From an uncultured bacterium (GTDB lineage Bacteria > Atribacterota > Atribacteria > Atribacterales > Caldatribacteriaceae): a stretch of 64,000 nucleotides of DNA. A model generated the notes under the pieces. That model did not search any database. It had not been told where the DNA came from and saw nothing but the letters and a program-made list of their open reading frames with translations. Every line of letters starts with the position of its first letter. Position 1 is the first letter of the stretch. The stretch covers positions 1-64,000 of the forward strand of contig CALAIW010000007.1 of assembly GCA_937922705.1 (NCBI GenBank). Reading direction: 5' to 3'. A program made the translations under genes and the position numbers. Below, one piece after another: positions 2,584 through 61,192 of the stretch.

Positions 2584-2586
2584 AGT

Positions 2587-4850: not shown

Positions 4851-4864
4851 GGAGGAAAACCCCC

Positions 4865-5131: not shown

Positions 5132-5169
5132 GTTCTCAAGCCTCCTTTGCATTAAGGCAGATTATACTC

Positions 5170-6353: not shown

Positions 6354-6359
6354 GGAAGT

Positions 6360-6365
6360 ATTATA
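6360..6365 (-). promoter_or_regulatory. Candidate -10 box of ATP synthase operon
   Basis: A perfect TATAAT on the minus strand ends 6 bases before the ATG at 6353. A start site at the usual distance would fall on the A of the ATG, giving a leaderless transcript. No convincing -35 box is seen 16-18 bases upstream, so this call is tentative. Confidence 0.4.
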
Positions 6366-6406
6366 CGACTCAGGGAGAAAATTGGTGCCCGTGCTTCTGG
6401 GGGTAC

Positions 6407-6435
6407 TTGAAAAAAGTTATCGTCCCGAGTATTAT
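6407..6435 (+). promoter_or_regulatory. Promoter of tRNA-Gly
   Basis: TTGAAA (6407-6412), a 17-base spacer, then TATTAT (6430-6435). The expected transcription start is about 7 bases before the mature tRNA 5' end. Confidence 0.75.
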
Positions 6436-6448
6436 ATTGAAGCGAGGA

Positions 6449-6523
6449 GCGGAAATAGCTCAGGGGTAGAGCATCGGCTTCCCAAGCCGAGGGTCGCGGG
6501 TTCAAATCCCGTTTTCCGCTCCA
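6449..6523 (+). tRNA. tRNA-Gly (CCC)
   Basis: A 75-base cloverleaf with encoded CCA. Acceptor GCGGAAA pairs with TTTCCGC; the anticodon stem TCGGC/GCCGA encloses loop TTCCCAA, giving anticodon CCC; the T arm is GCGGG-TTCAAAT-CCCGT. It is divergent from the ATP synthase operon. Confidence 0.96.
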
Positions 6524-6835
6524 ATTTTTATTGGTGAGAGTATCGACTCCACAAGGGGGAGATGACCTGCCCCCGCTCACAAGCATGGAGTGTGCCTCAC
6601 GCAACGTTTTTCTGGTCACATCACGAAAGAACTTTCTTTTGGGCGTTTTGCCTATTTTGAGCACGCTTGAAGAACTTACTCCCTGTTGGACCAAGACAAC
6701 GCAGAGCACATGGACACTGGGGTGCACATTAAGCTTGAGTCGCAACATATCCTGCAAGGTGAGCAAGGGAAGGAACCGGCGAGGGAACCAATGATTCCAC
6801 CGTGTTCTCGTAGTACCATCTGCTTTTTGGCATGT
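6524..6835. other. Intergenic stretch without recognised gene
   Basis: About 310 bases between tRNA-Gly and the 3' end of the acetyltransferase gene. Open frames exist on both strands, but they read through the tRNA or lack any family resemblance. I see no terminator with a T-run and no repeat. Confidence 0.5.
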
Positions 6836-7957: not shown

Positions 7958-7984
7958 AGGGCCCCTAGCAGGTTTTTTGCCTGT

Positions 7985-8013
7985 AGTGTATCCTTTCTTG
8001 AGAAGACAAGCAA
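7985..8013 (-). promoter_or_regulatory. Promoter of the acetyltransferase gene
   Basis: Minus strand: TTGCTT (8013-8008), 17-base spacer, TACACT (7990-7985). The leader of about 25 bases contains a small hairpin (CAGG/CCTG) before the start. Confidence 0.55.
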
Positions 8014-8025
8014 GGGGGTTACCGT

Positions 8026-9498
8026 ATGGATGAAGTTTTCCTTGGTCCTAATTGGCTTCTCACTACTAAGGAGGCGGTATGGCTCTACTATGAGGTGGCT
8101 TTGCCTTTTCGGAAATCCTGTGGCATTGTCGATATTCATACGCATTTGAGCCTCAGACAGATTTGCGAAAACCAGTCATTTCTCAATATCTGGAAGGCAG
8201 AGGTGGTGGACGAGCGGTACGGAAACCGTGACCACTATCTTGTACAACTTGCGGCCAAATTTCCGCCCTTTTCTTTTGAGCTGGCTTATGATGCCTCTCG
8301 TTCCGACTTTGAAAAATGGATGGCTCTAAGCAGCGTTTTTCCCTACCTTGAGGGCAACCACGTCCATCAGTGGATGCACCTTGACCTTCAGAGAATTTTT
8401 GGCATTTTCGACCTTCTTGGCCCAGAAACAGGGAAGGCTGTATGGGAGGTTACAGAGAAGGCCTTGACACGAGAGGACATGCGTCCTCAGGCACTTCTTG
8501 AGAGAATGGACGGTCGCCTTTTTGCTACGACTGATGATCCCTTAGATGACCTTGAAGACCACAAAAAGGTCCGAGAAATGCTCCCTAATCTTGTCTTTAT
8601 ACCTACTTTTCGTCCTGACGCATATATCAATATTGCCGATGCGTGCTGGAGAGAAAAAGTGGAGAAAATCTGTGCTGCGACGGGTGAGGACACGACCCTG
8701 AATGGGCTCACTGCCGCTTTGCAAAAGCGCCATGCCTACTTTGTTGCCATGGGTGCTCGAGCAAGTGACCATGGACTTTTAGAACCGTGGGGTTTTGAGG
8801 TCCCTGAGTCTCGCGCAGAGGAGATTTTTATACGAGCATATGAAAAGGGGGAACGCTTTTACCCTCGTTCTCTTGAGGTCAGGGAGTTTGTTTCTTACAT
8901 GATGCATCGCCTCTTTGAGATGGACTACGATGCGAAAATGGTAACCCAGATTCACTTTGGAGTTCTCCGGGACGCCAATGAGTACCTCTTCGTCCACTTT
9001 GGGAAAAATGTCGGAGGAGATGTTACCCTTGACAGCGTCCAGGTGGTGGAGAACTTACGTCCTCTTCTGTCGCGCTTTTGTGGTACAAGCGGGAATACAC
9101 ATCACATTGTCCTCTACACGATGAATCCTGAATATCTCCATGTTCTTGTGGCACTGGAGCGGGCTTTTCCTGGAGTCCATATTGGCTTTCCCTGGTGGTT
9201 CAACGACACACCTTACATGATTGAGCAAGCACTTTGCGAGGTGGCCAATGCTTCCCTTCTTACCTCCATGGTAGGTCCGGTGGCTGACGGACGAAAAATT
9301 CTCTCTGAGGGAAGCCGCTTTGAAGTCTTTGATCGAATGATTTGCCGAGTGGTCGGCAAACTCCTCTCTGAGGGCCAGGTTTCCCGCCAGGGCGCTGTGC
9401 GCCTAGTGGAAGCTTTGATGTACCGCAATGTGGTCCGGCTCTTTAGGCTCGAAGAGATTCTCTCAGGAGAGCACTTTTTGAGAAGTACTACGCCTTAG
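8026..9498 (+). CDS. Glucuronate/uronate isomerase-like protein (UxaC family)
   Basis: A 490-residue TIM-barrel metal-dependent hydrolase-fold protein. The N-terminal DIHTHL provides the metal-binding HxH, GNHVHQWMHLDL matches the GNPLYHWTHLEL pattern of uronate isomerases, and TTDDPLDDLEDH corresponds to the family's TDDPxDDLxxH. These enzymes interconvert glucuronate and fructuronate (or galacturonate and tagaturonate) in the cytosol. It is more divergent than typical UxaC in the middle, so the substrate could differ. Start ATG 8026 follows AAGGGGG. No other uronate-pathway gene is adjacent. Confidence 0.82.
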   Translation: MDEVFLGPNWLLTTKEAVWLYYEVALPFRKSCGIVDIHTHLSLRQICENQSFLNIWKAEVVDERYGNRDHYLVQLAAKFPPFSFELAYDASRSDFEKWMALSSVFPYLEGNHVHQWMHLDLQRIFGIFDLLGPETGKAVWEVTEKALTREDMRPQALLERMDGRLFATTDDPLDDLEDHKKVREMLPNLVFIPTFRPDAYINIADACWREKVEKICAATGEDTTLNGLTAALQKRHAYFVAMGARASDHGLLEPWGFEVPESRAEEIFIRAYEKGERFYPRSLEVREFVSYMMHRLFEMDYDAKMVTQIHFGVLRDANEYLFVHFGKNVGGDVTLDSVQVVENLRPLLSRFCGTSGNTHHIVLYTMNPEYLHVLVALERAFPGVHIGFPWWFNDTPYMIEQALCEVANASLLTSMVGPVADGRKILSEGSRFEVFDRMICRVVGKLLSEGQVSRQGAVRLVEALMYRNVVRLFRLEEILSGEHFLRSTTP

Positions 9499-9561
9499 AG
9501 GATTTTTCAATGGCGGAAAAAGAGGGAGATTTCTCGTTGAAAAGTCCTGCTCAAAAATAAA

Positions 9562-9638
9562 TGGTAGGCCGTGCAGGACTTGAACCTGCAACCCACTGAT
9601 TAAGAGTCAGTTGCTCTGCCAAATTGAGCTAACGGCCC
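9562..9638 (-). tRNA. tRNA-Lys (CTT)
   Basis: A 77-base cloverleaf with encoded CCA on the minus strand. Acceptor GGGCCGT pairs with ACGGCCT (one G-U); the anticodon stem ACTGA/TCAGT encloses CTCTTAA, anticodon CTT; the T arm is GCAGG-TTCAAGT-CCTGC. Confidence 0.96.
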
Positions 9639-9652
9639 ACCAGGCAAGCTAA

Positions 9653-9681
9653 AATATACTATGGGAGAGAAAGTGTGTCAA
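9653..9681 (-). promoter_or_regulatory. Promoter of tRNA-Lys
   Basis: Minus strand: consensus TTGACA (9681-9676), exactly 17 bases, TATATT (9658-9653), about 15 bases before the tRNA. Confidence 0.85.
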
Positions 9682-9751
9682 GGGATTTTGGAAAAGTTGT
9701 AGAATCCTGGTTGTGTCGTGCTTTCTCTGATCCCCAGAGAGTATTCCACTA

Positions 9752-43298: not shown

Positions 43299-43411
43299 GA
43301 TAGGGGGTGCTTCCTAGAGAGGCGCTGGAATTGAAGGATGGGAGTGTAAGGCAAAAGTACTGAAACCAGTTTGGTTTAGAAGGATTTTGTAGCCCTTTGA
43401 GGAGGGGGAAG

Positions 43412-44473
43412 ATGGAGAAAGAGGGTGGAGGGTCTTGGACAAAGAAGATCCTTTGTGTCCAGGGTGCAGGAGAACAACCTGATTGGGAGTCCTTTGATAG
43501 CTACGCTTTTGAGTGCGTTCCTGAAAATGAAGTTCTCTCTCGGATTCTTGAGGGCGCTCCTTTCCATTGTGTATTCCTTCCGGTTTCTTTCTTTCAGCGG
43601 ATTGCCCTGCTTCTTGAGGGAATTCCCTCTGCCTGTTGGGTCATCAACAGGGATCGAAAAATTCTTGCTCAGAATCGTGCAGCAGAAAGGGACTGGGGGA
43701 CAAGGGTTGGCGAATACTGCTTTCTTGCCGTCCACAAAGGAAAAGCTCTCCCTGAAAAGGACAGAGAAAAAGCCCTTGCGGGGAAGATTCGTCCAGGCAT
43801 GCAGTGTGTTTTCTGCCGCGCTGATGAGGCACTTACCAAATAGGAGCCTGTACGTTGCGAAATTGCGTGGGAGGGGAAATTTTGGGACGTCTTTTGGGTT
43901 CCTTTGGGAAAAGATGTGTACCTGCACCACGCTTACGATGTAACCCCATACCGGGAAATGGCTGAAGAGCTCAAGGTCTTGGCTATAACTGATAGCCTTA
44001 CTGGGGTGTACAACCGCAGGTATTTCTTTGACGTTCTCCTTCGGGAGATCAAACATGTTGAGGAGAGTGGTGGGAAGCTCTCTGTTATTCTCTTCGACCT
44101 TGACTTCTTTAAGGTGGTAAATGATTCCTTTGGGCACGATGTTGGAGATAAGGTCCTTGTTGAAGTTACCCAAGCGGTACAGGCGCTGATACGAAAAGAC
44201 GATGTTCTTGCTCGCTTTGGAGGCGATGAATTTGCTATCCTTTCTTTGGGCACAGGTGTTTTCGAGGCTGCATCTGTCGCTCGAAGGGTTGAGGAGGCTA
44301 TTTGTGCTCTTGGGAAACGGTATGGAGTGGTGCTTGGGGCAAGCTTTGGAGTGGCGGAGTACATTCCAGGAGAGGGTGTTGAAGCATTCCTGAGACGGGC
44401 TGATACCCTCCTCTATCAAGAGAAGCACAAAAAGCGGGCGTTAAACACTTCTGGAGCCGGCGATCCGACTTGA
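43412..44473 (+). pseudogene. PAS-like/GGDEF diguanylate cyclase with in-frame TAG
   Basis: One continuous frame of 353 codons interrupted only by TAG at 43841-43843 (codon 144). Before it: a response-type N-terminus and a PAS-like domain with CVFC. After it: the PAS end (CEIAWEGKFWDVFWVPLG) and a full GGDEF domain (LTGVYNRRYFFDVL, FDLDFFKVVNDSFGHDVGD, RFGGDEF, GASFGVAEY). The active site is intact. ATG 43412 has GGAGGGGG upstream. Its 3' end runs into the left island repeat and tRNA-Thr copy. Nonsense mutation, sequencing error or readthrough. Confidence 0.8.
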
Positions 44474-44535
44474 ACGGACAACCTGCGGATTACGATTCCG
44501 CTGCTCTGCCATTGAGCTACACCGGCTCCGGGGAA
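44448..44535. repeat. Left 88-bp direct repeat (att-like)
   Basis: Identical over 88 bases to 60602-60689; the match ends abruptly at both sides. Contains tRNA-Thr plus 9 bases of its 5' flank and 4 bases of its 3' flank. Confidence 0.95.
44452..44526 (-). tRNA. tRNA-Thr (CGT), left copy, promoterless
   Basis: A 75-base cloverleaf with encoded CCA, anticodon loop ATCGTAA (CGT) in stem GCGGA/TCCGC. Identical to the right copy. Upstream on the minus strand no TACAAT or TTGACA-like pair is found, so it is probably silent, a by-product of integration. Confidence 0.9.
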
Positions 44536-47441: not shown

Positions 47442-48695
47442 GTGGCATGGAAGGCACGAAAGACCTTTTTAGCAGGTTTTTGGGGGTTGGTACTATTTTT
47501 GCTCTATTCCCTTTCCCGCCGGAATTATCTTCTTTTTCATTCTATCATTGAATTCTTAGCCATCCTTACCGGTTTTACCATGTTTCTTTTTGCCATGACG
47601 GCTTCCTCAGTGAGCCGCAACACCGTGGTACAGAAGCTCGGGTGGCTATACCTTGGGGTGGCAAGTATCGATACCCTCCATACTCTCTCTTATAAGGGTA
47701 TGGGTGTATTTCCAGGATATACGGCCAACCTCCCCACCCAGTTCTGGATTCTGGGTCGTTTGGTAGAATTCGGTGGCTTAGCCGTCATTGTCCTGTGGCC
47801 CCGGCACGTTTCGATAGGTGCACTGGCGTTAATGGTTTTTTCAGCAGCAATTGCTGGTAGCAGCACCATTTTTTTGGGGTACTTTCCAGATTGTTTTCTG
47901 GAAGGGAAAGGTCTTACGCTTTTTAAGGTTGTTTCTGAGTATGTCATGATTGCGTTGTTGTTTACGCTACTCATTCAGGTACAACGCGATAGAGATGAAG
48001 ATATGCTCCCCTTTCGAAAACCGATTTCCTGGGCACTTGTCCTTAGTGCTCTAGCTGAGTTTTCTTTTACTCTTTATACCGACGTGTACGGGTTTTTCAA
48101 TATGTTAGGGCACCTTTTTCGATTTATTTCTTATTTCGTTCTCTTGGAGGGGATTGTGGTGGAAAGCATCAGAAAACCTTTTGATGCCCTTCTTTTTGAG
48201 GTTCAGCAAGAAAAAAACCAGCTTGAAGAAATAGCCAAACGAGATGCCTTGACTGGAGTTTTTAACCGTCATTTTTTTAATGAGTGGATTAAGGAACACG
48301 CTCAGGGTCTGTCTTCCTTGGGTTTGACTTCGACCCTTGTGTTTCTGGACGTGGATAACCTGAAAGTGATTAATGATACCTATGGGCACCTGACAGGAGA
48401 CCAGGTACTTTCCTTTGTTGCCAGAATACTTCGGGAAAACCTTCGTAAAGATGTGTTGATTGCCCGATATGGTGGAGACGAATTTGTGGTAGTTTTCCCA
48501 AAAACGAGGGCTTCTGAAGCTTGCATAGCTATGGAGCGGGTACAGTGTTCCATGGCTAATCAGAGTGAGTTTTCCTTTCCCATTTCTTTCTCTTTTGGAG
48601 TTTCCGAATTTCGCAACCTGGACGAAGCGGAGAAAATCCTCCTTCAGGCGGATCAGGAAATGTATGCGATGAAAAAGGCAAGGCTCAGAATGTAA
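47442..48695 (+). CDS. MASE3-type membrane diguanylate cyclase
   Basis: A 417-residue protein. Six to seven membrane helices (residues 8-235) contain the MASE3-like SIDTLHTLSYKGMGVFP and PTQFWILGRLVE, followed by a coiled linker and a GGDEF domain: LTGVFNRHFFNEW, LDVDNLKVINDTYGHLTGD, ARYGGDEF and ISFSFGVSEF. It should make cyclic di-GMP at the membrane. Intact, unlike its neighbours to the left. GTG start with GGAGG upstream. The only non-defence intact gene of the island. Confidence 0.88.
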   Translation: MAWKARKTFLAGFWGLVLFLLYSLSRRNYLLFHSIIEFLAILTGFTMFLFAMTASSVSRNTVVQKLGWLYLGVASIDTLHTLSYKGMGVFPGYTANLPTQFWILGRLVEFGGLAVIVLWPRHVSIGALALMVFSAAIAGSSTIFLGYFPDCFLEGKGLTLFKVVSEYVMIALLFTLLIQVQRDRDEDMLPFRKPISWALVLSALAEFSFTLYTDVYGFFNMLGHLFRFISYFVLLEGIVVESIRKPFDALLFEVQQEKNQLEEIAKRDALTGVFNRHFFNEWIKEHAQGLSSLGLTSTLVFLDVDNLKVINDTYGHLTGDQVLSFVARILRENLRKDVLIARYGGDEFVVVFPKTRASEACIAMERVQCSMANQSEFSFPISFSFGVSEFRNLDEAEKILLQADQEMYAMKKARLRM

Positions 48696-49055: not shown

Positions 49056-51371
49056 GTGTATGACTACACGTGGGATGAAGAAACTGGGGGATATGTACTC
49101 CAGCCGACCATTTCTTCCCCACAATTAGAAGTGCGCCCGGTATTTTTTGAGGAACTTGATCTCCTTGGTTTTGATCGATTCTGGGAGTATCCACGGGGTG
49201 AAATGCCTCTCCTTTGGGCTCAAGGCCGTCAGTACTTTTATCGTGGGGAACTCGTGGCTGAAACAATTGGTGGGAGGCTTTTTGTATTCCCGCAAGTGAA
49301 AGTCTACAAGAAATCATTAAAGCTCAGACCAGTCGATATCCAGGGGATGATCGCCAAGAATCACGACTTGATGGATGGACTGGTTAAGGAAACCCTGGAG
49401 AAAACATATGTCATCTTCAAAAAATATCAGAAGAAGTCCTATTTTTCCTACGTTGCTTTTAGTGGCGGGAAGGATTCGTTAGTCCTATTGGATTTAGTCC
49501 AGAGGACATTGTCACCTGATGATTTCGTGGTGATTTTCGCCGATACAACCATGGAGTTTTCCGAAACCTATCGAGCGCTCGACAGAGCGCGCAGGCGTTG
49601 GCCAGCGGTACGGTTTTACGTTGTTCGAGCTGCATACGATGCGCGAGAAACGTGGAGGATTTTTGGGCCACCAAGCAGGACGCTTCGGTGGTGTTGCAGT
49701 GTACACAAGAGTGCTCCCTCTTTACTCCTTTTACGAGAACTGGTAGGAAAATCTTCCCTGAAAGCTTTAGCCTTTGACGGAATCCGCGCCGAAGAAAGCC
49801 TTTCCCGAGCCACGTATACCTTAGTGAATATGGAAGCCAAGCACATTACCCAGGTTAACTGCAGCCCCCTCCTTGAGTGGGGATCAAGCGAGTTGTACCT
49901 CTACCTTTTTGCTCAAGACTTATTGTTGAACCGGTGTTACCGATACGGCATGACAAGAGTGGGGTGCGTTCTCTGCCCATATGGTTCACCGTGGCGGGAG
50001 TTTATTGCCGGCGCAGCTTTTGGTGAAGAAGTCCGACCTTTCGTGGATATCCTTCATGAAGTCTTTGCTTCCACAATTCCACAGGAGGAGCGGGAAAATT
50101 ATATTATTCAGGGGAAGTGGAAGGGGAGAAATGGAGGAAGAAACCTTAATAAAGTGGGCAACAGAGTAGTTGAGGTGGAAGAAGGCTCGGGTGCCGTTAC
50201 GCTTCATCTTCGCGAAAAGCATTCTCCCTGGCAGGAGTGGATGAAAATCCTGAGTTTCCACACCTTTCAGGGCAAATCGTACATTCGGTGGAATGAAGCA
50301 TTGCATGAAGTAAAAGTTGTGGATAATGGGAATGGTTTAACGGTGAAAATTTGGATTAATCTTCAAGATATCCAGCAAAGAAAGCTTTACCAGCTGGTGA
50401 AGGATGTTTGTCATAAAATTGCTTATTGTCAGCAGTGTCAGGTTTGCATGGTAGAATGCCCTGTTGGAGCGCTGGAGATGGAACAGGGGAAATTGCTGGT
50501 TCGCGAGGACCTCTGTACCCACTGTACCAATTGCCTCAGGGTTCGTCAGGGGTGTTTGATTGCCGACTCGCTTAGCGTAAAAGGGGGAAACGTGGCGATG
50601 CACAAAATTCGGGGGTACAAAACCTTTGGGTTGCGGCGGGAATGGGTCCAATACCTTTTTGAGTTTGGTGAAGCGTTTTGGGGCAGTCCACGTTTAGGAA
50701 GCGCTCAAATTGAAGCTTGTAAAGAGCTTTTCCGGGAAGCTGGACTTACCGATACCGGGAAGAAGAATAGCTTAACTGACCTTGCTAAAAAGCTATCTCG
50801 CCTGGGTGCTGATGATGTGCGCGTCTGGGCCATTATTCTGGTAAATCTGGCGTACAATTCAGGACTCATCCGATGGTTTCTCTTTGCAACAGACGTTGGA
50901 CGGGAATATACGTCTGAAGAACTCCTTGACATGATGGGCGAAACGCTTCCGCGGTCGACCAGGGAGAATGCTCGTCAATCTCTCCACGAAACCTTCAAGT
51001 TTTCGCCCTTAGGAAACGAATTGGGCTTGGGGATATGTCGGTTTAAAGGAAAGCAGGTGGTGGCGGTAACGCATCATCGATGGGCAAATCCGGACGCCCA
51101 TGTCGTTCTCTATGCACTTTATAAATTCGCTGAAGAAGCGGGGGGAGTATACAGTTTTACCCTTAGACAACTCCTGGATGATCACCCTGAGCGAAAAGGA
51201 ATAAGCCCCGCCAAAATTTTCGGTCTTACGGAAGAGGAGTTGAGGGCCATTTTACAGGGGCTTTCCCTCAATCATCCAGATTTTATCAAGGTGGTTTTTA
51301 CCAGGGATCTGGATAATGTAAACCTCAGTCGAGACAAAAGTTGTCTTGATGTGGTTGACCTTTTCTGCTAG
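49056..51371 (+). CDS. brxP: BrxP: PAPS-reductase-like protein with ferredoxin and DUF4007-like domains
   Basis: A 771-residue multidomain protein. After a roughly 110-residue N-terminal domain, a PP-loop ATP-pyrophosphatase domain of the PAPS reductase/DndC type has SGGKDS near residue 135, an ADTTMEFSET segment and a CC pair (LRWCCSVHK). Two 4Fe-4S sets follow (CQQCQVCMVECP near 458, then CTHCTNC). The last 230 residues (RREWVQYLFEFGEAFW to SPLGNELGLG) resemble DUF4007. Family knowledge ties such proteins to sulphur activation and, in DndC, to DNA phosphorothioation; that role is inferred here. GTG start. Confidence 0.9.
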   Translation: MYDYTWDEETGGYVLQPTISSPQLEVRPVFFEELDLLGFDRFWEYPRGEMPLLWAQGRQYFYRGELVAETIGGRLFVFPQVKVYKKSLKLRPVDIQGMIAKNHDLMDGLVKETLEKTYVIFKKYQKKSYFSYVAFSGGKDSLVLLDLVQRTLSPDDFVVIFADTTMEFSETYRALDRARRRWPAVRFYVVRAAYDARETWRIFGPPSRTLRWCCSVHKSAPSLLLLRELVGKSSLKALAFDGIRAEESLSRATYTLVNMEAKHITQVNCSPLLEWGSSELYLYLFAQDLLLNRCYRYGMTRVGCVLCPYGSPWREFIAGAAFGEEVRPFVDILHEVFASTIPQEERENYIIQGKWKGRNGGRNLNKVGNRVVEVEEGSGAVTLHLREKHSPWQEWMKILSFHTFQGKSYIRWNEALHEVKVVDNGNGLTVKIWINLQDIQQRKLYQLVKDVCHKIAYCQQCQVCMVECPVGALEMEQGKLLVREDLCTHCTNCLRVRQGCLIADSLSVKGGNVAMHKIRGYKTFGLRREWVQYLFEFGEAFWGSPRLGSAQIEACKELFREAGLTDTGKKNSLTDLAKKLSRLGADDVRVWAIILVNLAYNSGLIRWFLFATDVGREYTSEELLDMMGETLPRSTRENARQSLHETFKFSPLGNELGLGICRFKGKQVVAVTHHRWANPDAHVVLYALYKFAEEAGGVYSFTLRQLLDDHPERKGISPAKIFGLTEEELRAILQGLSLNHPDFIKVVFTRDLDNVNLSRDKSCLDVVDLFC

Positions 51372-51388
51372 GGGGGTGTTAAGAAAAA

Positions 51389-54300
51389 ATGTTCGGGCGG
51401 TATGCAGAGTATATTCAAGTCGATGAGGATTTTATTCCTGTATTCGATGAGGGTTGGGATAAAAAGTATCCAAAGCGATGGAAGTCCTTCTATCCTCATC
51501 ATGATTTCTTGAGTATTCTTGAATCGGTAGTGGCCACACTTGAAGGGACCAGAAACGAAGACCGAAAATCTTTATGGGTTTACGGGGCCTATGGGACTGG
51601 GAAAACTTTCGCTTCGTTTGTCATCCAGCACCTTCTTGAAGACCCTCTTGAGGACGTAGAGGATTATTTCCAAGTCTATAAGCTGAATCGCTCACTTTTG
51701 AACCGTTTGATTGGCTTGCGTAAGCAAAAGACGATCCTCGTTGCACGACGCTCTGCTTCTTCGGGGATTACCCAAGACTACCTTCTCTTTGAAGCATTGC
51801 AGAGCTCAATTATTGAAAGCATCAAACGGCACCATTTTACCTACCTTGGCACTCAAAGCCTCTACCAGGAGGTGGTATGGCACCTGAGTGATCCTGATTC
51901 TCCGTTCGATTTTCCTAAAGTTTTTCGGAGGGCAAGAAACAAGTATTTTCCCGAGTATAGTTCGCCAGAAGCTGTCATTCGGGACTTAAAAGAACGAAAT
52001 CCCGAACAGAATAGCGATCTTCTTTCGAGGGTCGTGGAGTTTCTTAGAGAAGAAAGGCAAAGCATTGTGCCTGATGATCCTCAAAAAATCTGTATCTGGA
52101 TTGCTGATGTCATTCAGCGCAATGGAATTCACGCCATGCTTTTTATCTGGGATGAGTTCAGCGATTACTTTCGCCAGAATCGAGCTTTTACAGGCCTCCA
52201 AGAAATTGCTCAAGCGGTTTCTTCGGCTCCTTTCTATCTTTTCCTCATCACCCACAAGGATTACGAACAGTTCTTGAAAGACGAACAAGATCGCCGGCGT
52301 ATTATGGATCGATTCAAGACACACCATATCTACATGTCTGAGCCGACTGCCTTACAGCTTATGGCCAACGTGATCCAGGTTAAACCGGAAAAGGAAGACG
52401 AATGGCAAAAAGTTTCAGAAGCACTCTGGAACGCAGTAAAACCAGGAATACGCAGATTATTTGAAATCCTGGAGAATGATTCCATGCGTTGGGAGCATTT
52501 GAGGAAGCTTCTTCCCGTCCACCCCTATTCTGCGTTTCTCCTTAGTATCCTCTCCCGTTTTTTGAGTTCCAACCAGCGAACCATGTTCCAGTTTTTGAGC
52601 GGAAAGGGTGAAAAAAGTCCCTATAATTTCCAGTGCTTTATCGAGGAATACGGAATAAGCGCAAGAAAACTTTTGACTTGTGATGTGCTGTGGGATTACT
52701 TTTTTGCTCAGGATAACGTTGAAATTCCCGATAGTATCCGCTGGATTGTGAACCGCTTGAGCAATGTTAAGGAGAAAGCCCAAAACGATGAGGAGTTGCG
52801 GGTTCTGAAAGCCGTTTTCCTCCTCTGTGCTGTACAGCGAATATTCGCCGCACGAAGTATTTCATCGGGATTGCCCAGTGCTCTTTTGGTGCCCACCCTC
52901 TCAAATCTTTCTTTAGCCTTTGCTGGAACCGAAATAGAGGACAAGCTGCGAAGTATCTTGGAGAGACTGGTGAAAGAAAGGATTCTCTGGACTCGCAGGG
53001 AAGGGGAAGACGTGCAGTATATCCTCCAGGAGGACATCACCGATCCGGAGCGGTATAACGAAATTCTGGAACAAATCCGTCGGGAAATGCCTCTGGAGCG
53101 CATCATGGAAAACGAAAAGGTGGAAGGCTGGATCCAGGAGAAGCTCTCGCCAGTGTATCTGAGGGACCGATTCCAGCCGCTCAAGTGTGCTTCCAGACGG
53201 AACTGGAAGAACGTTTTGAAAGAACCTTCTTCTGGACGTGTTCCCTGTGTGATTATTGTTACTACGCGAACAAGTGAGGGGAATGAGCTGGAAGAAGAAG
53301 TCTCAAGATACTTGGACAACGTTTCATTTGAATGTGTGGCGATCAGCGCTTCATCTGAACCTTTCGGAGAAGATAACCTGGAAGAGTACTGGAAAAAAGA
53401 GGCTGATGTTCGTTATTTCGAACAAATTGGAGGAAGGAACGAAAATATAAAGCTCTATGAAGAGCAGCGCCAGAATGTTGTTAAAGCCTGGCTGAATAGG
53501 CTTCAGAATGCCGTCTTTTTGGTACGGTACCGCATTCAAGACCGGAATACCCCTTCCAGGTGGGTTACCAGGTCCCGGCGGGTTGAGGGTTTAGAGGAGT
53601 TGCGAAAAGAGCTGGAGTTGATCGACAAGAGTATCTTCTACTGGGGTTTGGAAACGATTGCCGAACATGAGTCCCTTTTCAAATCAAAATCTTTCAGTAA
53701 GGAGATCGTCAAAATCGGAACCGGCGTTTCAAAGGCGAGTGGTCGGTATAATTACTTCAGCGATCTTAGATCGAAACTCGAATCCATGGGTGTTTGGAAT
53801 GAAGAGCGATATTGGGAGAAGGACTATCGTGAGGAAAGAGCACAGGCAATTGTGGCGATGAAAAGGGAAGTAGAAAGGGTGATTACCACTTCTTTGCAGG
53901 AAAAACGAGAGGTAACCATCCGAGATATTTACGAAGCGCTCCAGCAAAAACCCTTTGGCCTCTTAGAATGGGCGGGGACTCTCTTTTTGCTGGGATTCCT
54001 GCTTCGGGATTATTGCAAAGGGCGTTATTACCGGTATGACGGGAAGAGCGCTGTGCCCATTAACGATGATACATTGGCAGACATGGTTTTTAACGCGGTA
54101 CGTAAAGACGAAGATAGTGTCAGGATTGTGGAGATGACAAAGGAACAAGAACTGTTTTGCCTGTGTTCGGTAAGGATTTTTCCTTTCGACCAGGAACGCC
54201 AGAAGTATTCCATCAAAGGCATTCAGAACGCTATCCGTGATTATCTGAGTCGAGTAAGGTATCCCCTGTGGAGCGTTCGGTTCACAGGAAATCTAAAAGA

Positions 54301-55762
54301 GGATGAGGATAAGGTTCAAGAGATAATCGACTCTTTCTGCTCTTTTGTGGCCTGTCGTTACCAGACGGGCAGTGAGGATGAATCGTATACCCAGCCGGTT
54401 CAGGAGATTGCTCTTGCTGAGGAAATCGCTCGGAAAATTGCCGATTTCGATCCGCTTGTTTCTTTTGCTGGAATAGACTATCTGGTGCGAGGAGGAGAAA
54501 TTACCTCTCCAAGCGTCGCCAAGCTTCTTGAGGAACTCCGTCAACTTTTTCAACCTGATTCCCTCAAGAAAGGGTTACAGGAATACTTGCGCACCCAATG
54601 GCCACAACTTCTGGATCTTGCTCGACGTGTCAACTTTGATGATGAAGCGATTCTGCGTGTTATCAAAAGAAGGACGTCTGAGGATGCCGCCTGGCTGTGG
54701 GAAAAGGAAGATTTCGACCGAAAAGTCGAACAAGTTCAAGAGGACCTGAATTTGCTTGCGCTCTTGCGGCAGTACTTCAGCGAAGCAGTCCGCGAAGAAG
54801 ACACGATAGGAACGTATCTGCGGCGGGTTTTTGCCACAGTAAAAGTCTCCCATGCTTATATTCGAGAAGAATCGCCGTGTCCTCAGCTGGTGGAGCAGAT
54901 CCTTCAAGTATGCCAAGACCAAGATTTAAGCCTTGAGATAAACAACAAGAGGGCCTTCTTTGAAGCGCTGGTAATGCATGGAGAAACGCTTGCTCAATTT
55001 TTCACCAAAGAGGGATTTGCTCAGGTGATCCGAAAACACAGTGAGGAGATCCTCTCTATTTCCCCAGGTGAGGAAGAACTCTTTGAACTCTACGAGAAGC
55101 TTCCCAGTGGGCAATTTTTATGCTCGAAAGAAGAATTTGTGAACACGGTGCGTCATACCTGGGAGGAGTATCAGGCTTCAAACAAACTGAATATCCTCAA
55201 AAGGACCTGGCAAAAACAGTCGGGAACAAATTCTCCTCGAGAATGGTCGAAGAAATGCGGTATACCCGTTTTTTGGGTTTTAGGGGAAGAACCACTCGTC
55301 CAGGATACTTGCGAAGCGCTGGAAGGAAAAAGAAGGTTAGACGCTCATGCCTTAGAAAAGGCCAACCATTTTCTGGAAACAAGCGATAAAACGGGCTACC
55401 TGGGGGATTTAACAAAATGTAACGAGCTTTTTATTCGCCGACTTTTTCCCGGTCAAGAGCAGATATTACTCCTTTTGATGGACCACGTCGAAGAACTTAA
55501 AGCCTACATTAGGGATAAAGTGGCTGAAGAACCCTACGAGTGGTACCGCCTTGCTCAGGAAGTGCAGAGGATAGCGCGTGAATACTGGAGCGAGCTTTAC
55601 AAAAGTTACTACGCCGATAAAGCTCGCAAGAGGGTTGAAACAATGGATGCGCTTGAAGCCAAGCAATGGTTAGAAAAAATGGTGTGTGGGGATCCCTGGA
55701 TTGGGATGGCCATTCTTACGGAAAACGCTCAAAGGGAATGGAAAAATTTAAAAAATTTTTAA
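51389..55762 (+). CDS. brxC: BrxC/PglY-type P-loop ATPase
   Basis: A 1457-residue protein, somewhat longer than the usual roughly 1200. Walker A GAYGTGKT at residues 66-73 and a Walker B strand MLFIWDEFSDYF near residue 250 mark an N-terminal AAA-like domain; RFKTHHIYMSEPTALQLMAN follows. The remaining 900 residues are charged and largely helical. BrxC is the conserved large ATPase of BREX systems. It begins 17 bases after brxP and its end overlaps pglZ by 25 bases. Confidence 0.9.
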   Translation: MFGRYAEYIQVDEDFIPVFDEGWDKKYPKRWKSFYPHHDFLSILESVVATLEGTRNEDRKSLWVYGAYGTGKTFASFVIQHLLEDPLEDVEDYFQVYKLNRSLLNRLIGLRKQKTILVARRSASSGITQDYLLFEALQSSIIESIKRHHFTYLGTQSLYQEVVWHLSDPDSPFDFPKVFRRARNKYFPEYSSPEAVIRDLKERNPEQNSDLLSRVVEFLREERQSIVPDDPQKICIWIADVIQRNGIHAMLFIWDEFSDYFRQNRAFTGLQEIAQAVSSAPFYLFLITHKDYEQFLKDEQDRRRIMDRFKTHHIYMSEPTALQLMANVIQVKPEKEDEWQKVSEALWNAVKPGIRRLFEILENDSMRWEHLRKLLPVHPYSAFLLSILSRFLSSNQRTMFQFLSGKGEKSPYNFQCFIEEYGISARKLLTCDVLWDYFFAQDNVEIPDSIRWIVNRLSNVKEKAQNDEELRVLKAVFLLCAVQRIFAARSISSGLPSALLVPTLSNLSLAFAGTEIEDKLRSILERLVKERILWTRREGEDVQYILQEDITDPERYNEILEQIRREMPLERIMENEKVEGWIQEKLSPVYLRDRFQPLKCASRRNWKNVLKEPSSGRVPCVIIVTTRTSEGNELEEEVSRYLDNVSFECVAISASSEPFGEDNLEEYWKKEADVRYFEQIGGRNENIKLYEEQRQNVVKAWLNRLQNAVFLVRYRIQDRNTPSRWVTRSRRVEGLEELRKELELIDKSIFYWGLETIAEHESLFKSKSFSKEIVKIGTGVSKASGRYNYFSDLRSKLESMGVWNEERYWEKDYREERAQAIVAMKREVERVITTSLQEKREVTIRDIYEALQQKPFGLLEWAGTLFLLGFLLRDYCKGRYYRYDGKSAVPINDDTLADMVFNAVRKDEDSVRIVEMTKEQELFCLCSVRIFPFDQERQKYSIKGIQNAIRDYLSRVRYPLWSVRFTGNLKEDEDKVQEIIDSFCSFVACRYQTGSEDESYTQPVQEIALAEEIARKIADFDPLVSFAGIDYLVRGGEITSPSVAKLLEELRQLFQPDSLKKGLQEYLRTQWPQLLDLARRVNFDDEAILRVIKRRTSEDAAWLWEKEDFDRKVEQVQEDLNLLALLRQYFSEAVREEDTIGTYLRRVFATVKVSHAYIREESPCPQLVEQILQVCQDQDLSLEINNKRAFFEALVMHGETLAQFFTKEGFAQVIRKHSEEILSISPGEEELFELYEKLPSGQFLCSKEEFVNTVRHTWEEYQASNKLNILKRTWQKQSGTNSPREWSKKCGIPVFWVLGEEPLVQDTCEALEGKRRLDAHALEKANHFLETSDKTGYLGDLTKCNELFIRRLFPGQEQILLLLMDHVEELKAYIRDKVAEEPYEWYRLAQEVQRIAREYWSELYKSYYADKARKRVETMDALEAKQWLEKMVCGDPWIGMAILTENAQREWKNLKNF

Positions 55763-58149
55763 GTTTGCAAGAATTAGGGAATTTTCTCGACGAAGAGCGA
55801 ACGAAGTGGAGTCAATGGGTGGTTCGTTTCATCCATGCAGAAACCGAGTCGGATTGGATTAACCTGGTGCAGCTTCTCAGGGACTTCGCCCAAACTTGGT
55901 CGCTGTCTCGTTACTGCTGTGAAGATGATTTGTGGCCTGATCTATCGCTTTTACTTGGTGAACTTGCGTCGATCCAGCAGAATGTCCTTCTCATCCCCCT
56001 ACCAGCTCACTTACGCATGTTGAAACGTACCATGTCGAATGCTTTCCTGGAAGAGTTGGTGCGAGTCATACCAAAAGCTGAACCTGAGAAAAGGGGAAAA
56101 CTCCGAATTTATGTACCCCTTTACGGGGCTCTGGACCAGATCTCTCGATTGGTTGCTGGAGACCAGCGACTTGGTGATGCTTGTCTTTCTTTAGAGAGTA
56201 CTGAAGGAGCGTCCACACAGAGTAGTAAGGTAACCGTCGTAAGTAAAGAACTTCCCATTTCCCCGGTTTTCTTTGACGAAGAAGGGTGGATTGTCCGCCA
56301 GAGTTATAAAGAATACTTAGAGTACTGGGAGAACTTCCCATCACCTGGGAAACGGATCTTTCTCTTTACCGAACTTGCTGGTTCAAGTGGGCATCCGTTC
56401 GGTGAGGGAGTGGAAGTTTTAGTCAAACCCTTTGAAGCTTTGGAAGCGCTTTGTCCTGAATGGCGTCGCTACGGCATCAGTGAGGATTGGGGACCTAATG
56501 AATACTGGAGAGAACTGCTCTCATGGTTTTATAGCAAGGGGCGGTTTCGGAGTAAGGGGCTTATGAAGAACCTTCACAACATTCTGGAGATTTCCCCAAA
56601 TGAAGAAAAACCTGAGGCAGTGTTATCACAGTGGAGTACAAGCACTCCGTTTAAAAAATGGCTTCTTCTTGTGTGGCTCTTTTTGAAGCAAAACAAGGGA
56701 TATCTGGCGCTGGTCTTTCAAGGGGGTTTTCCCAATACCAAGCAGTTCGAGGAACGCTTAGCAACTGCGGTCTTTTTGATTGAGAGTCCGGCAAAGAATC
56801 CTCAATACTGGGAATGCTATCAGGAACGCAAACGATACCTTCAAGCTATGGGGATTACCAAACTCCCCTCCTCTTTCTGGGAAGAGCTTGAAAAACAAAA
56901 GGAATCGTCTGTCGCCCGCTTGCGCTACCTTACCGACCGTACCAGGGAGGAGAAAGAGAAGGTGGTTGATCTGGTTGGCACTGCCTTAAGAAAGGGAGTT
57001 CCCCTCCAGGAAATCCTTGGCACGCTCTCGAAGGTTTACCCAGGACTTTTCTGGTACTTAGCATGGGAGGCCGTTTGTGATTCTATTTCGTCTTCGCAGG
57101 TTGATTTACAAAGTTATTTTAGCGAGTATGTGCAACAAAAGATTGCTGATTTGGTAAAACCTGATTTTGTGGAACGAGTGAGGACTGTCGCAGAAGCCAA
57201 AGGTGTATGGTGGCAAGACTTTCAGCCGACAAAGCATATCGTCGACCAACTTTACCAAGATGGACAGACGCTTCTTTACTGGATCGACAGCTTGGGTCTT
57301 GAGTATCTGGGGTATCTGGCAGGTCTTCTTGCTCAGAAAGAGGAGCTTACATATGCCATTCACATTGGCTACGCTTTGCTACCTACGACTACTGAATACA
57401 ATAAGGCCTTTTTGGAAGGGAAAATAGTACAGGAATTTCGCCAGCTTGATGAACTCAAGCATAGTAACCAGTACTCCTATCCTGAGAGTATTGTGGACGA
57501 ACTCGATCTTTTACAAAAAGCTCTTGATGAAGCGGTATCTCGTCTTGATGACTATAAGAAGGTTCTTATCGTCTCGGATCATGGGGCCAGCCGGCTGGCA
57601 GTGCTCTCTTCCAAAAACAATCTCGGACTCTCATATCCTCCGAAACCCGATGCCAGGGTAAAAAAGTATGGGCGCTACTGTGTGGATGAGAAACATTCTT
57701 ACAGCTCTGAGATTCCCACTTGTATCGATTTCGGGGTGTACCACGTTTTCGCCGACTATGGCCGTTTTGCCGTTTCAGGAGGAAATGTAGGAGAAATTCA
57801 TGGTGGAGCCACCTTAGAGGAAGTGCTCGTTCCCATCATTGAGGTTCAAAAAAGGGTTGAACTTTCTAGAGCCATGCACCCGCAGGTCAAATTGGAGAGT
57901 ACTCTGGTAAAATTAAAACCGGGAACAAAACCAAAGATACGCTTTGAGATATCCCCTGAGGTTACAGGAAATGTCGTGGTTCAGGTTGAAGGAAAGAATT
58001 ACCCGTGTTTTCAAGAAGGATCATTCTGGGCTTTTGAAATTGAGACCAAACAGCCACTCGTTCAAGGGGTGGTAATTGTGGGTGGCCGCGAAGTCGGCAG
58101 AATTGCAGTGCATATCCAGCGGGGAATTCTGGAACACGATGATCTGTAG
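55738..58149 (+). CDS. pglZ: PglZ, alkaline-phosphatase-fold BREX protein
   Basis: About 803 residues. The C-terminal half has the alkaline phosphatase superfamily metal ligands: YWIDSLGLEYL near residue 515, IVSDHGASRL near 611 and EIHGGATLEEVLVP near 687, followed by a beta-rich tail. PglZ is the hallmark shared by all BREX types. ATG 55738 (MEKFKKFLSL) lies after AAAGGG and overlaps brxC by 25 bases; the longer frame from 55666 would overlap by 97 bases. Confidence 0.92.
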   Translation: MEKFKKFLSLQELGNFLDEERTKWSQWVVRFIHAETESDWINLVQLLRDFAQTWSLSRYCCEDDLWPDLSLLLGELASIQQNVLLIPLPAHLRMLKRTMSNAFLEELVRVIPKAEPEKRGKLRIYVPLYGALDQISRLVAGDQRLGDACLSLESTEGASTQSSKVTVVSKELPISPVFFDEEGWIVRQSYKEYLEYWENFPSPGKRIFLFTELAGSSGHPFGEGVEVLVKPFEALEALCPEWRRYGISEDWGPNEYWRELLSWFYSKGRFRSKGLMKNLHNILEISPNEEKPEAVLSQWSTSTPFKKWLLLVWLFLKQNKGYLALVFQGGFPNTKQFEERLATAVFLIESPAKNPQYWECYQERKRYLQAMGITKLPSSFWEELEKQKESSVARLRYLTDRTREEKEKVVDLVGTALRKGVPLQEILGTLSKVYPGLFWYLAWEAVCDSISSSQVDLQSYFSEYVQQKIADLVKPDFVERVRTVAEAKGVWWQDFQPTKHIVDQLYQDGQTLLYWIDSLGLEYLGYLAGLLAQKEELTYAIHIGYALLPTTTEYNKAFLEGKIVQEFRQLDELKHSNQYSYPESIVDELDLLQKALDEAVSRLDDYKKVLIVSDHGASRLAVLSSKNNLGLSYPPKPDARVKKYGRYCVDEKHSYSSEIPTCIDFGVYHVFADYGRFAVSGGNVGEIHGGATLEEVLVPIIEVQKRVELSRAMHPQVKLESTLVKLKPGTKPKIRFEISPEVTGNVVVQVEGKNYPCFQEGSFWAFEIETKQPLVQGVVIVGGREVGRIAVHIQRGILEHDDL

Positions 58150-58165
58150 TGAGTAGGAGAAGCCC

Positions 58166-59608
58166 ATGATATCGCCATTAGAAGAGAAACTGAAAACCTA
58201 TTTTGAGGATATGGTGGTCTTCAAGTCTCCGGACCAGGTGAAGTTTTTTGCTTCCTTGAGTCTTCCTTCCTTTATGCGGGATTGGTTGGTCATGAAATTC
58301 TCTGATCCAGAAGGACGAATCGACACTGACGAAGTGGCCAGTTATGTCAGGAAGTTTATCCCGCAGAAAGAAGACTGGGAGAAACTCAAGTATGCAATGA
58401 TCCGCGACGGTAAAGTGGTGAAGATTTTGGCCAAAGTTCGCGTTGAAGTGGATGTGGCAAAAAGGAAAGTCCTTTTTAGTCTTCCTGATTTTGGTTTTCC
58501 CAAGAAGAAATACGAGGCGGTGGTTGACGATGCGGCCATAAAAGGCAAAGAACACCACCTTCTACGACCGGGCGATGTCTGGGGTACAGTAGAACTCGTC
58601 TGCGAACCTTCTCTCGGTGATAAGGGTAGTGTCATGAAAATGATCAGTTTCAAGCCTTTCTGCCCTTATGAAGTTACCCTCGACTACTTCTGTGACGCTC
58701 GTCAATATTTCACCACTGAAGAGTGGATAGATGTCTTGCTCTCAGCCGTTGACTATAATCCCAAAGGGTTTGACACCGAACTGCAAAAGCTCACCCTCCT
58801 GACTCGATTGACACCTTTTGTGGAAAAACGGCTGAACCTTATAGAACTTGCTCCTAAAGGGACGGGCAAATCGTATATCTTTTCCAAGATCAGTAAATAT
58901 GGTTGGTTGGTGAGCGGAGGGAGTATATCCCGAGCCAAGATGTTCTATGACATGAATACCAAGGTCGAGGGGTTGGTTTCCCACTATGATTATGTCGTTT
59001 TTGATGAAATCCAGAGCATTCGGTTTACCGATGAATATGAAATGCGAGGAGCGCTCAAAGGGTATTTGGAGAGTGGTGATTACCGGGTTGGCAACCATCG
59101 AGGAGTTGGTGAAGCAGGATTGGTGCTTTTGGGAAACATCGATCAGTCCTTTATGGATGTTAATCGCAACATTTTTTCCGAGTTACCAAGTATCTTTCGC
59201 GAGTCGGCACTTCTCGACCGCTTTCATGGGTTTATTAAAGGTTGGGACATTCCCCGAATGCACGAAGGGATGAAAGCCAGCGGTTGGGCTTTAAACGTGG
59301 AGTATTTTTCTGAAATTCTCCATCTTTTACGAGGGGAACTCGTCTATCGCGCTGTAGTTGACGAGATCGTTGAAGTGCCCCCTAATGCTGACACAAGAGA
59401 TACAGAAGCAATTAAGAGGCTATGTACTGGGTTGCTGAAGCTCCTCTTTCCTCACCAGCGTTCTCCTGAGTCAATCCAGCCAGAAGAATTTGTGAAGTAT
59501 TGCCTTGAGCCAGCCAAAAAGGCCAGAAGGATCATTAAGATTCAATTGGGTATTTTAGACTCGGAGTTCCGAGGAAAAGACATTCCTGATATTCGACTCA
59601 AGGAGTGA
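58166..59608 (+). CDS. brxL: BrxL, short form without Lon protease domain
   Basis: A 480-residue ATPase. The N-terminal domain ends in LPDFGFPKKK; then DARQYFTTEEWIDVLLSAVD, Walker A PKGTGKS near residue 230, VVFDEIQSI near 277 and LLGNIDQSFMDVNRN. The long BrxL form of about 680 residues carries a C-terminal Lon-like domain; this protein stops at DSEFRGKDIPDIRLKE, matching the short family. ATG start 17 bases after pglZ. Last core gene of the type 4 order P-C-Z-L. Confidence 0.92.
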   Translation: MISPLEEKLKTYFEDMVVFKSPDQVKFFASLSLPSFMRDWLVMKFSDPEGRIDTDEVASYVRKFIPQKEDWEKLKYAMIRDGKVVKILAKVRVEVDVAKRKVLFSLPDFGFPKKKYEAVVDDAAIKGKEHHLLRPGDVWGTVELVCEPSLGDKGSVMKMISFKPFCPYEVTLDYFCDARQYFTTEEWIDVLLSAVDYNPKGFDTELQKLTLLTRLTPFVEKRLNLIELAPKGTGKSYIFSKISKYGWLVSGGSISRAKMFYDMNTKVEGLVSHYDYVVFDEIQSIRFTDEYEMRGALKGYLESGDYRVGNHRGVGEAGLVLLGNIDQSFMDVNRNIFSELPSIFRESALLDRFHGFIKGWDIPRMHEGMKASGWALNVEYFSEILHLLRGELVYRAVVDEIVEVPPNADTRDTEAIKRLCTGLLKLLFPHQRSPESIQPEEFVKYCLEPAKKARRIIKIQLGILDSEFRGKDIPDIRLKE

Positions 59609-59620
59609 AGGGGTGTACTC

Positions 59621-59818
59621 GTGCCAAAGGATCAGTGTCAAGAATGTGGAAGAGTGCTTTCGAAAGACTGTGTTGCCCTGAATAAAAAACTCCTGGGCAG
59701 GAAGGTCCAATCCTTCTACTGTATTTCCTGTTTGGCTAGCTATCTAGACTGCTCAGAGGACCTTCTATGGCGCAAAATAGAAGAGTTTAAGGAACAAGGG
59801 TGCGGTTTATTTCGCTAA
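59621..59818 (+). CDS. Small cysteine-rich (zinc-ribbon-like) protein in the BREX operon
   Basis: 65 residues, starting at GTG 13 bases after the brxL stop. CQECGR and CISC give two CxxC pairs about 30 residues apart, suited to one zinc ion; LNKKLLGRKVQSFYCISC and a C-terminal CSEDLLWRKIEEFKEQGCG form a compact fold that resembles small conserved proteins of anaerobes, function unknown. It is not part of the described type 4 core. Its close spacing and direction place it in the defence transcript. No catalytic motif is seen. Confidence 0.75.
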   Translation: MPKDQCQECGRVLSKDCVALNKKLLGRKVQSFYCISCLASYLDCSEDLLWRKIEEFKEQGCGLFR

Positions 59819-59829
59819 ATGTAATTATT

Positions 59830-60500
59830 CCTGGGTGACGGGGAATTACTTCCTACTAGCTTCCTTCTCTGCTCTCTGGCTTGTCTTTATGTTTTTTTAC
59901 TTCTTGCAGTCTGCTTTTTGTGCTCACTTGTTGCACATGTGGAGCACGCAGAGCAAAGAAGCTCCTGGCAGGAAGGTCGCCGAGCGACACAAATGGGAGT
60001 GTGGGGTAAAGACAAAAGCGGGGATCACTCTCTCACTTCTTAGCGGGAGGGAACGACTTCGTTACCCACTCCAAAAAACATCATCAGACGCCTATTTAAG
60101 ATCGTAAAACGGCTTTATGTTTTTAGAAAATGTCATAGTGGTGCGTTCATTGTATCTGAGCAACACGAGCTTCCTGCCGCTGCTTTCGCAGGGGTAGGTT
60201 CTTGAACTCCCTATTCTCCATTTCTTCTTTGGAAAAGGCCTTAAAGGATATTCTAGATGGTGGGAGGAGAAAAGCATAACACTCTCTTTAATTTTAGTAG
60301 GCAAGGACTGCCTTTCGAAGCGTTTCTTCTGAGTTCAGAGCCAGGGGAAACTTCCGAAAGAAGGCAGTGATGTGCTTCTTATAATCCCGAATGGTTCGCT
60401 CTGCTTTGCCTTCTGCTCGCTTCTCAAAGAGAAAGAGTTCAAGGAGTGCCTCAGCACTTTTCTCATGCTTGAAATGGACGATTTTGCCCATCGCTTCCAA
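59830..60500 (-). pseudogene. Tyrosine recombinase (integrase), decayed
   Basis: The first 68 codons (from 60500) encode the SAM-like core-binding domain (LELFLFEKRAEGKAERTIRD, then YKKHITAFFRKFP) and stop at 60294. Other minus-strand frames continue with AFSKEEMENREFKNLPLRK and, near 59950, LPARSFFALRAPHVQQVSTK, in the order expected of the catalytic domain. The RHR-Y active site cannot be assembled. It lies directly inside the right repeat, as an integrase at its own attachment site would. Confidence 0.7.
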
Positions 60501-60601: not shown

Positions 60602-60689
60602 CTTCTGGAGCCGGCGATCCGACTTGAACGGACAACCTGCGGATTACGATTCCGCTGCTCTGCCATTGAGCTACACCGGCTCCGGGGAA
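60602..60689. repeat. Right 88-bp direct repeat (att-like)
   Basis: Identical to 44448-44535. Homology ends 5 bases before the integrase-side flank and right before the promoter of the tRNA on the other side. Confidence 0.95.
60606..60680 (-). tRNA. tRNA-Thr (CGT), right copy with promoter
   Basis: A 75-base cloverleaf with encoded CCA; acceptor GCCGGTG/CGCCGGC with one G-U; anticodon CGT. This copy keeps a promoter and is probably the functional gene and the original integration site. Confidence 0.96.
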
Positions 60690-60719
60690 ATTGTAGCAAA
60701 ACGCGCGAAAAAGCGTCAA
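60690..60719 (-). promoter_or_regulatory. Promoter of the right tRNA-Thr
   Basis: Minus strand: TTGACG (60719-60714), 18 bases, TACAAT (60695-60690). It starts exactly where the repeat ends, so the left tRNA copy lacks it. Confidence 0.75.
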
Positions 60720-60774
60720 GAGGTCGCATGGGTTCACGTGACGTGTACTTTTAGGAGTTCCTATTTCCCAAACC

Positions 60775-61092
60775 CTACTGTAGCTTTGTGCGCTTCTTGT
60801 GCGAAGTATGCCGCCGCGTCCTTTTCTTCGAACCGTCCTCAAGAACCTGCTGGAGTTTGTAGACCACTCGACGGGGGCTTGGACCTACTTCTCTAAACGA
60901 TAAGCTCAAGGCGTCCTTTGTGTACATCCAAAAACCAGGCTGGGGGAGGGTCGACTTGACTTTAAAGATCCCCCTTTGGGGTTGCGCTCTGAGGGGACAC
61001 TGTGTACGTTTATCGATGAAGCGGTAAGGGCTCTCGGTGGCCTCACTGGATCTCCAAAAAGGGCAGAGTATGCTTTCCCAAGGTTCCCTCAT
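60775..61092 (-). pseudogene. Frameshifted ORF of unknown family
   Basis: The frame from 61092 reads KRTQCPLRAQPQRGIFKVKS, then PQPGFWMYTKDALSLSFREV and VVYKLQQVLEDGSK, then loses sense; a second frame continues with EKDAAAYFAQEAHKATVGFG and a stop near 60770. Together they look like the C-terminal part of a protein with one frameshift. The family is not recognised. It occupies the place where pstB might be expected but does not resemble an ABC ATPase. Confidence 0.4.
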
Positions 61093-61192
61093 AGAGTGTA
61101 GTCACCCTTAAAGAGGTTCCAGACTGCCCATCGGCATTCCCCGGGGTTCACTGACTCGTAGGGAAACTCTGAATCGTTGCACTACGCGGTTT

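What the first reader, a model, noticed from the sequence alone, without database searches (positions are those of the whole stretch)
49056..59818. Five-gene type 4 BREX-like defence operon with PP-loop chemistry and no methyltransferase
The order PAPS-reductase-like (BrxP), BrxC ATPase, PglZ and BrxL is that of type 4 BREX, one of the least studied types. There is no PglX methyltransferase. BrxP combines an SGGKDS PP-loop, two 4Fe-4S sets and a DUF4007-like domain, so self-marking by sulphur chemistry (phosphorothioation-like) is a reasonable inference. All five frames are intact while nearly everything else in the island has decayed, which suggests selection for defence.
Basis: partly seen in the sequence, partly recalled or inferred. 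Interest (0 to 1): 0.85.

Follow-up and report, generated by a model that had tools for sequence, protein, structure and literature searches.

The report
Complete type 4 BREX phage-defence island
The window holds a complete, apparently working copy of a known bacterial anti-phage system (type 4 BREX, which very probably marks the cell's own DNA with sulfur) on a genomic island at a tRNA gene; it is a good new example rather than a new kind of system, although its little-noticed fifth gene belongs to a conserved and still unnamed family.

Summary
Observation confirmed. Window 49056-59818 carries five intact genes: brxP, brxC, pglZ, brxL and a 65-aa zinc finger. The first four match type 4 BREX models decisively; no methyltransferase was found in the island. 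BrxP folds as a PAPS-reductase-like PP-loop enzyme with a ferredoxin-type dicluster and an SspB-like C-terminal DUF4007 domain, and the catalytic and cluster residues are kept.

The operon sits on a 16-kb island between two identical 88-bp repeats, each with a whole tRNA-Thr gene. A congener has the empty site. Most other island genes are broken, but an intact MASE3-GGDEF gene is an exception.

An operon-borne cysteine desulfurase occurs only where the zinc finger does (38 of 44 against 0 of 19). The window, like its two closest relatives, lacks the desulfurase; the genome has one housekeeping NifS. Verdict: a new member of a known kind.

The parts
49056..51371 (+). brxP: PAPS-reductase-like PP-loop enzyme (SGGKDS 136-141; CC 213-214 and CxxC 304-307), ferredoxin-type dicluster (Cys 458-500), C-terminal DUF4007/SspB-like domain (about 520-767); 771 aa, GTG start
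51389..55762 (+). brxC: large AAA+ ATPase, 1457 aa, Walker A GAYGTGKT at 66, Walker B MLFIWDE at 250
55738..58149 (+). pglZ, type 4 (mechanical ORF starts at 55666; start chosen at ATG 55738); alkaline-phosphatase-fold metal motifs WID 515-517, DHG 614-616, HGG 688-690 (numbered from 55738)
58166..59608 (+). brxL: short form, BrxL_N plus BrxL_ATPase domains, 480 aa, no room for a C-terminal protease domain; P-loop PKGTGKS at 230
59621..59818 (+). 65-aa CxxC...CxxC zinc-finger protein, fifth gene, conserved next to type 4 brx genes
44448..44535 (.). island boundary repeat, copy 1, containing tRNA-Thr(CGT) at 44452-44526 (minus strand)
60602..60689 (.). island boundary repeat, copy 2, containing tRNA-Thr(CGT) at 60606-60680 (minus strand); the copy that keeps the ancestral 5' flank
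60294..60500 (-). remnant of a tRNA-targeting tyrosine integrase (N-terminal SAM-like part only)
47442..48695 (+). intact MASE3-GGDEF diguanylate cyclase gene inside the island, upstream of brxP; not a known BREX part

Best explanation
This is a complete type 4 BREX anti-phage operon (brxP-brxC-pglZ-brxL plus a small zinc-finger gene), acquired on an island inserted at a tRNA-Thr gene. Likely mechanism: the host NifS cysteine desulfurase supplies sulfur in trans (inferred); the BrxP PP-loop domain activates a DNA backbone phosphate with ATP and replaces an oxygen by sulfur, aided by its Fe-S clusters, while its C-terminal SspB-like domain binds, and perhaps nicks, the target DNA (domain anatomy shown; chemistry inferred from published type 4 and Ssp work); BrxC assembles the complex on DNA in an ATP-dependent way (inferred from type 1). 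DNA lacking the mark leads BrxC, PglZ (metal-dependent phosphatase-fold nuclease) and BrxL (AAA+ DNA motor) to block phage replication (inferred). The zinc finger is probably an accessory DNA-binding or regulatory factor tied to the core genes rather than only to the desulfurase (weakly supported).
For: Decisive HMM matches for all four core proteins. Same gene set in 63 complete loci from many phyla. BrxP residues FS-GKDS, C213/C214, C304, C307, C458, C461, C464, C468, C487, C490 and C500 invariant in 48 divergent homologues. Confident model (mean pLDDT 92.3) matching APS/PAPS reductases (E 6.6e-9), SspB (E 1.3e-7) and TtuA sulfur transferases. Walker A/B of BrxC, metal motifs of PglZ and P-loop of BrxL kept and conserved. 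One clear NifS gene in the genome. Published: brxPCZL is one of three gene families that make phosphorothioates (PMC11931770), and type 4 BREX is a PT-dependent class (PMC12839542). Island: identical 88-bp repeats, empty site in congener G002.
Against: No phosphorothioate or phage-resistance data exist for this organism. The primary type 4 BREX paper (PMC12914056) was not readable here. No desulfurase lies in the operon, so sulfur supply in trans is an assumption. Expression is not shown. The closest BrxP found is only 47-48% identical, so selection could not be measured.
Confidence: 0.88

Rival explanations
1. A genuine type 4 BREX operon that is silent or non-functional in this host, for example because it lacks its own desulfurase or because the island is decaying.
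For: Most other protein genes on the island are broken; most zinc-finger-type relatives carry a desulfurase that is absent here.
Against: All five frames, about 10.7 kb of the island, are intact with catalytic residues kept; the two nearest BrxP relatives (L030, L031) also lack the desulfurase; NifS is in the genome.
Confidence: 0.1
2. An Ssp-like phosphorothioation system rather than BREX, with BrxP as SspD+SspB and BrxC as SspC.
For: BrxP matches SspD (E 2.6e-8) and BrxC matches SspC models (to 5.3e-22); BrxP has a fold match to SspB.
Against: Type 4 PglZ and BrxL are both present, and the BREX models far outscore the Ssp ones; no sspE or sspFGH-like gene was seen next to the operon.
Confidence: 0.03
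3. The PP-loop protein does sulfur metabolism (sulfate reduction or tRNA thiolation) unrelated to defence.
For: PAPS_reduct domain; folds like APS reductase and TtuA.
Against: BrxP homologues are linked to brxC in 78 of 89 loci examined, the others mostly on short or cut contigs; domain match to the SspB fold; no close copy elsewhere in the genome.
Confidence: 0.02

Closest known systems
Type 4 BREX (brxP-brxC-pglZ-brxL; PMC12839542, PMC11931770)
   Same: All four core genes in the defining order; BrxP fused to DUF4007; no methyltransferase; small zinc finger as mentioned in PMC12839542.
   Different: No operon-borne cysteine desulfurase; divergent sequence (BrxP at most 47-48% identical to relatives found); on a tRNA-Thr island.
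Ssp phosphorothioation (SspABCD-SspE; PMC9646914)
   Same: PP-loop sulfur enzyme, SspC-like ATPase, SspB-like domain.
   Different: SspD and SspB functions are fused in BrxP; the defence part is PglZ and BrxL, not SspE or SspFGH.
Nearest homologous loci: Nitrospirae bacterium MYbin6 (L030) and Sporomusa acidovorans (L031)
   Same: Same five genes in the same order, no desulfurase following.
   Different: BrxP 47% and 41% identical; unrelated hosts.
Second type 4 lineage, e.g. G007:C78 in the same family
   Same: BrxP end (contig edge), BrxC, PglZ, BrxL.
   Different: Has a second stand-alone DUF4007 gene, no zinc finger after brxL, and lies beside a tmRNA gene.

Membership tests
Type 4 BREX | PAPS-reductase-like BrxP in place of the methyltransferase | tested here: met
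   PADLOC BrxP E 1.1e-250; Pfam PAPS_reduct 102.9 bits; no methyltransferase among island ORFs scanned
Type 4 BREX | DUF4007, often fused to BrxP | tested here: met
   520-767 matches PADLOC PDLC02511; fold match of BrxP to SspB
Type 4 BREX | PglZ of the type 4 subtype | tested here: met
   NCBIfam NF033445.1, 405 bits against cut-off 140
Type 4 BREX | BrxC ATPase with intact nucleotide site | tested here: met
   PADLOC BrxC 5.2e-113; GAYGTGKT and MLFIWDE kept
Type 4 BREX | BrxL | tested here: met
   TIGR02688 443.5 bits against cut-off 329.3
Type 4 BREX | Cysteine desulfurase in the locus (about 56% of taxa in PMC12839542; optional) | tested here: not met
   None among the island ORFs; one NifS elsewhere in the genome
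Type 4 BREX | DNA phosphorothioation | not testable with these tools
   needs LC-MS or PT-seq
Type 4 BREX | Phage exclusion | not testable with these tools
   needs plating assays
Ssp system | SspE or SspFGH effector and separate SspB and SspD genes | tested here: not met
   fused BrxP; PglZ and BrxL present

The most novel reading that the evidence does not exclude
The 65-aa zinc-finger protein is a dedicated core component of one of two lineages of type 4 BREX, doing a job (DNA targeting, assembly or control of the complex) that the other lineage meets differently, sometimes with a second DUF4007 protein, and without which an operon desulfurase is not used.
Probability: 0.3. Interest if true: 0.5.

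Novelty: new member of a known kind. Interest (0 to 1): 0.32.

Why it matters
Type 4 BREX is among the least studied BREX types and the only one that replaces the methyltransferase with a sulfur-marking enzyme. This locus is a compact version with no operon desulfurase, so it offers a test of which genes are really needed. The co-occurrence pattern (desulfurase only with the zinc finger; zinc finger often without it) makes the role of the overlooked fifth gene directly testable by deletion.

Tried and rejected
(1) Zinc finger as a persulfide carrier between desulfurase and BrxP, suggested by an invariant fifth cysteine (C61): weakened, because divergent relatives next to GH27-type alpha-galactosidase genes, with no BREX in the fetched stretch, also carry a cysteine there. 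(2) Zinc finger as BREX-only: rejected; 9 of 13 copies among 300 genomes of the phylum of Desulfosporosinus are BREX-linked, 4 are GH27-linked. (3) Zinc finger in plasmid records: none found. (4) Its fold: no PDB match better than E 1.4, only weak helix-turn-helix resemblances. (5) Two desulfurases in the genome (my early note): corrected; the second strong Pfam hit is SerC, only one NifS is clear. (6) Integrase remnant as proof that BREX came with that integrase: not supported; a sister genus (G006) keeps the same remnant at the same tRNA without BREX in the stretch examined. (7) Sequence match of the DUF4007 part to solved structures: no meaningful one; only the fold shows it. (8) Type 4 BREX primary paper PMC12914056: not held.

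Full report
What is there. Five same-strand intact ORFs occupy 49056-59818: BrxP (771 aa, GTG start), BrxC (1457 aa), PglZ (mechanical ORF from 55666; ATG 55738 gives 803 aa and a short overlap with brxC), BrxL (480 aa) and a 65-aa zinc-finger protein. PADLOC, NCBIfam and Pfam identify the first four: BrxP E 1.1e-250, BrxC 5.2e-113, type 4 PglZ 405 bits against a cut-off of 140, BrxL 5.5e-210. No methyltransferase was found among the island ORFs scanned.

BrxP. In 48 divergent homologues the PP-loop residues F135, S136, G138, K139, D140 and S141, the cysteines C213, C214, C304 and C307, and the ferredoxin cysteines 458, 461, 464, 468, 487, 490 and 500 are invariant, G137 and C493 nearly so. 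The AlphaFold2 model (pLDDT 92.3) matches APS/PAPS reductases best (E 6.6e-9), then SspB crystal structures (1.3e-7) and TtuA tRNA thiolation enzymes. SspB has nicking activity thought to explain single-strand sulfur insertion (PMC9646914). A sequence search of the C-terminal part alone finds no SspB, so that link rests on fold and on the PADLOC BrxP model; which part of BrxP aligns to SspB was not printed, and the C-terminal DUF4007 part is inferred from PMC12839542, which equates DUF4007 with SspB.

Other enzymes. BrxC has GAYGTGKT and MLFIWDE; PglZ has WID, DHG and HGG; BrxL has PKGTGKS; the core positions are conserved across the 35-64 homologues aligned per protein. BrxL has only the N-terminal and ATPase domains.

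Distribution. One scan of GTDB species contigs plus viral, phage and plasmid hits gave 89 loci with BrxP; 63 have brxC, pglZ and brxL too. They span Bacillota, Bacteroidota, Planctomycetota, Thermodesulfobacteriota, Nitrospirota and archaea, and a few lie in viral contigs and in one archaeal plasmid. A BrxP tree (quick method, midpoint root) puts 42 of the 44 zinc-finger rows on one side, with the window near the base, and all double-DUF4007 rows on the other; two Lachnospiraceae rows with a zinc finger between brxP and brxC fall on the other side.

The fifth gene. The zinc finger is in 44 of 63 complete loci, mostly directly after brxL, sometimes between pglZ and brxL or between brxP and brxC. 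Profile search confirms its absence from the other 19. A cysteine desulfurase is in 38 of the 44 and 0 of the 19 (Fisher p 3e-11; loci are related, so p overstates). [quoted passage not shown] the additional point here is that the zinc finger is kept without a neighbouring desulfurase in the window, L030, L031, L037 and others, so it goes with the core genes. Ten columns are invariant, including C6, C9, C34, C37 and C61. No Pfam, NCBIfam or PADLOC family covers it. A divergent branch sits next to GH27-type genes in other genomes, so the family is not confined to defence.

The island. Two identical 88-bp copies, 44448-44535 and 60602-60689, each hold a complete tRNA-Thr(CGT). In congener G002 one contig reads EamA transporter, single tRNA-Thr, pstA within about 2.3 kb: the empty site. 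Copy 2 keeps the upstream sequence shared with relatives. An integrase N-terminal remnant lies beside copy 2. A sister genus, G006, has the tRNA and the same remnant (75% identical over about 400 bp) without BREX in the 12.5 kb examined, so the site has been used before and the remnant may not belong to the BREX insertion. None of four congeners has a full-length BrxP. In the same family, G007 has a type 4 operon of the other lineage beside tmRNA: an independent arrival.

Decay. Trypsin-like, transposase-like, NUDIX and integrase pieces are broken or short, but the 417-aa MASE3-GGDEF gene is full-length. Intactness of a 10.7-kb operon amid this is suggestive of selection, not proof.

Sulfur source. 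The genome (99.4% complete) has one clear cysteine desulfurase, NifS (555 bits against 530.75; also 381 bits to the DndA model, below its cut-off). Housekeeping desulfurases are stated to substitute in such systems (PMC12839542).

Mechanism. Shown: anatomy, conservation, linkage, island. From papers: type 4 BREX makes phosphorothioate (PMC11931770, PMC12839542); BrxC, BrxB and PglZ form a core complex in type 1 (PMC13326643). Inferred: sulfur transfer by this BrxP, NifS supply, replication block, and any role of the zinc finger.

Verdict. Ordinary in kind, clean in detail: a new member of type 4 BREX. The organism was not identified here.

Noticed in passing
window 43397-44473: A second GGDEF gene, apparently interrupted by an in-frame stop near 43843 and running into tRNA-Thr copy 1, lies between EamA and the island; congener G002 has nothing there, so this stretch is also an insertion (or a loss in G002).
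   Followed up: partly
L212 (G007:C78) 1-9700: A relative in the same family carries a type 4 BREX of the double-DUF4007 lineage directly beside tmRNA.
   Followed up: partly
L228, L229, L238-L241: Divergent homologues of the fifth-gene zinc finger sit next to GH27-type alpha-galactosidase genes in several genomes, with no BREX genes in the fetched stretch.
   Followed up: partly
L252 (G003:C169) 2520-3107: A longer copy of the integrase family, cut by the contig end, lies beside tRNA-Arg(TCT), suggesting that this integrase family uses several tRNA genes.
   Followed up: no
L028 21478-23190: The Methanosphaera plasmid type 4 BREX is followed by a DUF262-domain gene, a possible extra restriction factor.
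   Followed up: no
window 60690-61190: About 460 bp of extra DNA between tRNA-Thr copy 2 and pstA compared with congener G002; origin unknown.
   Followed up: no
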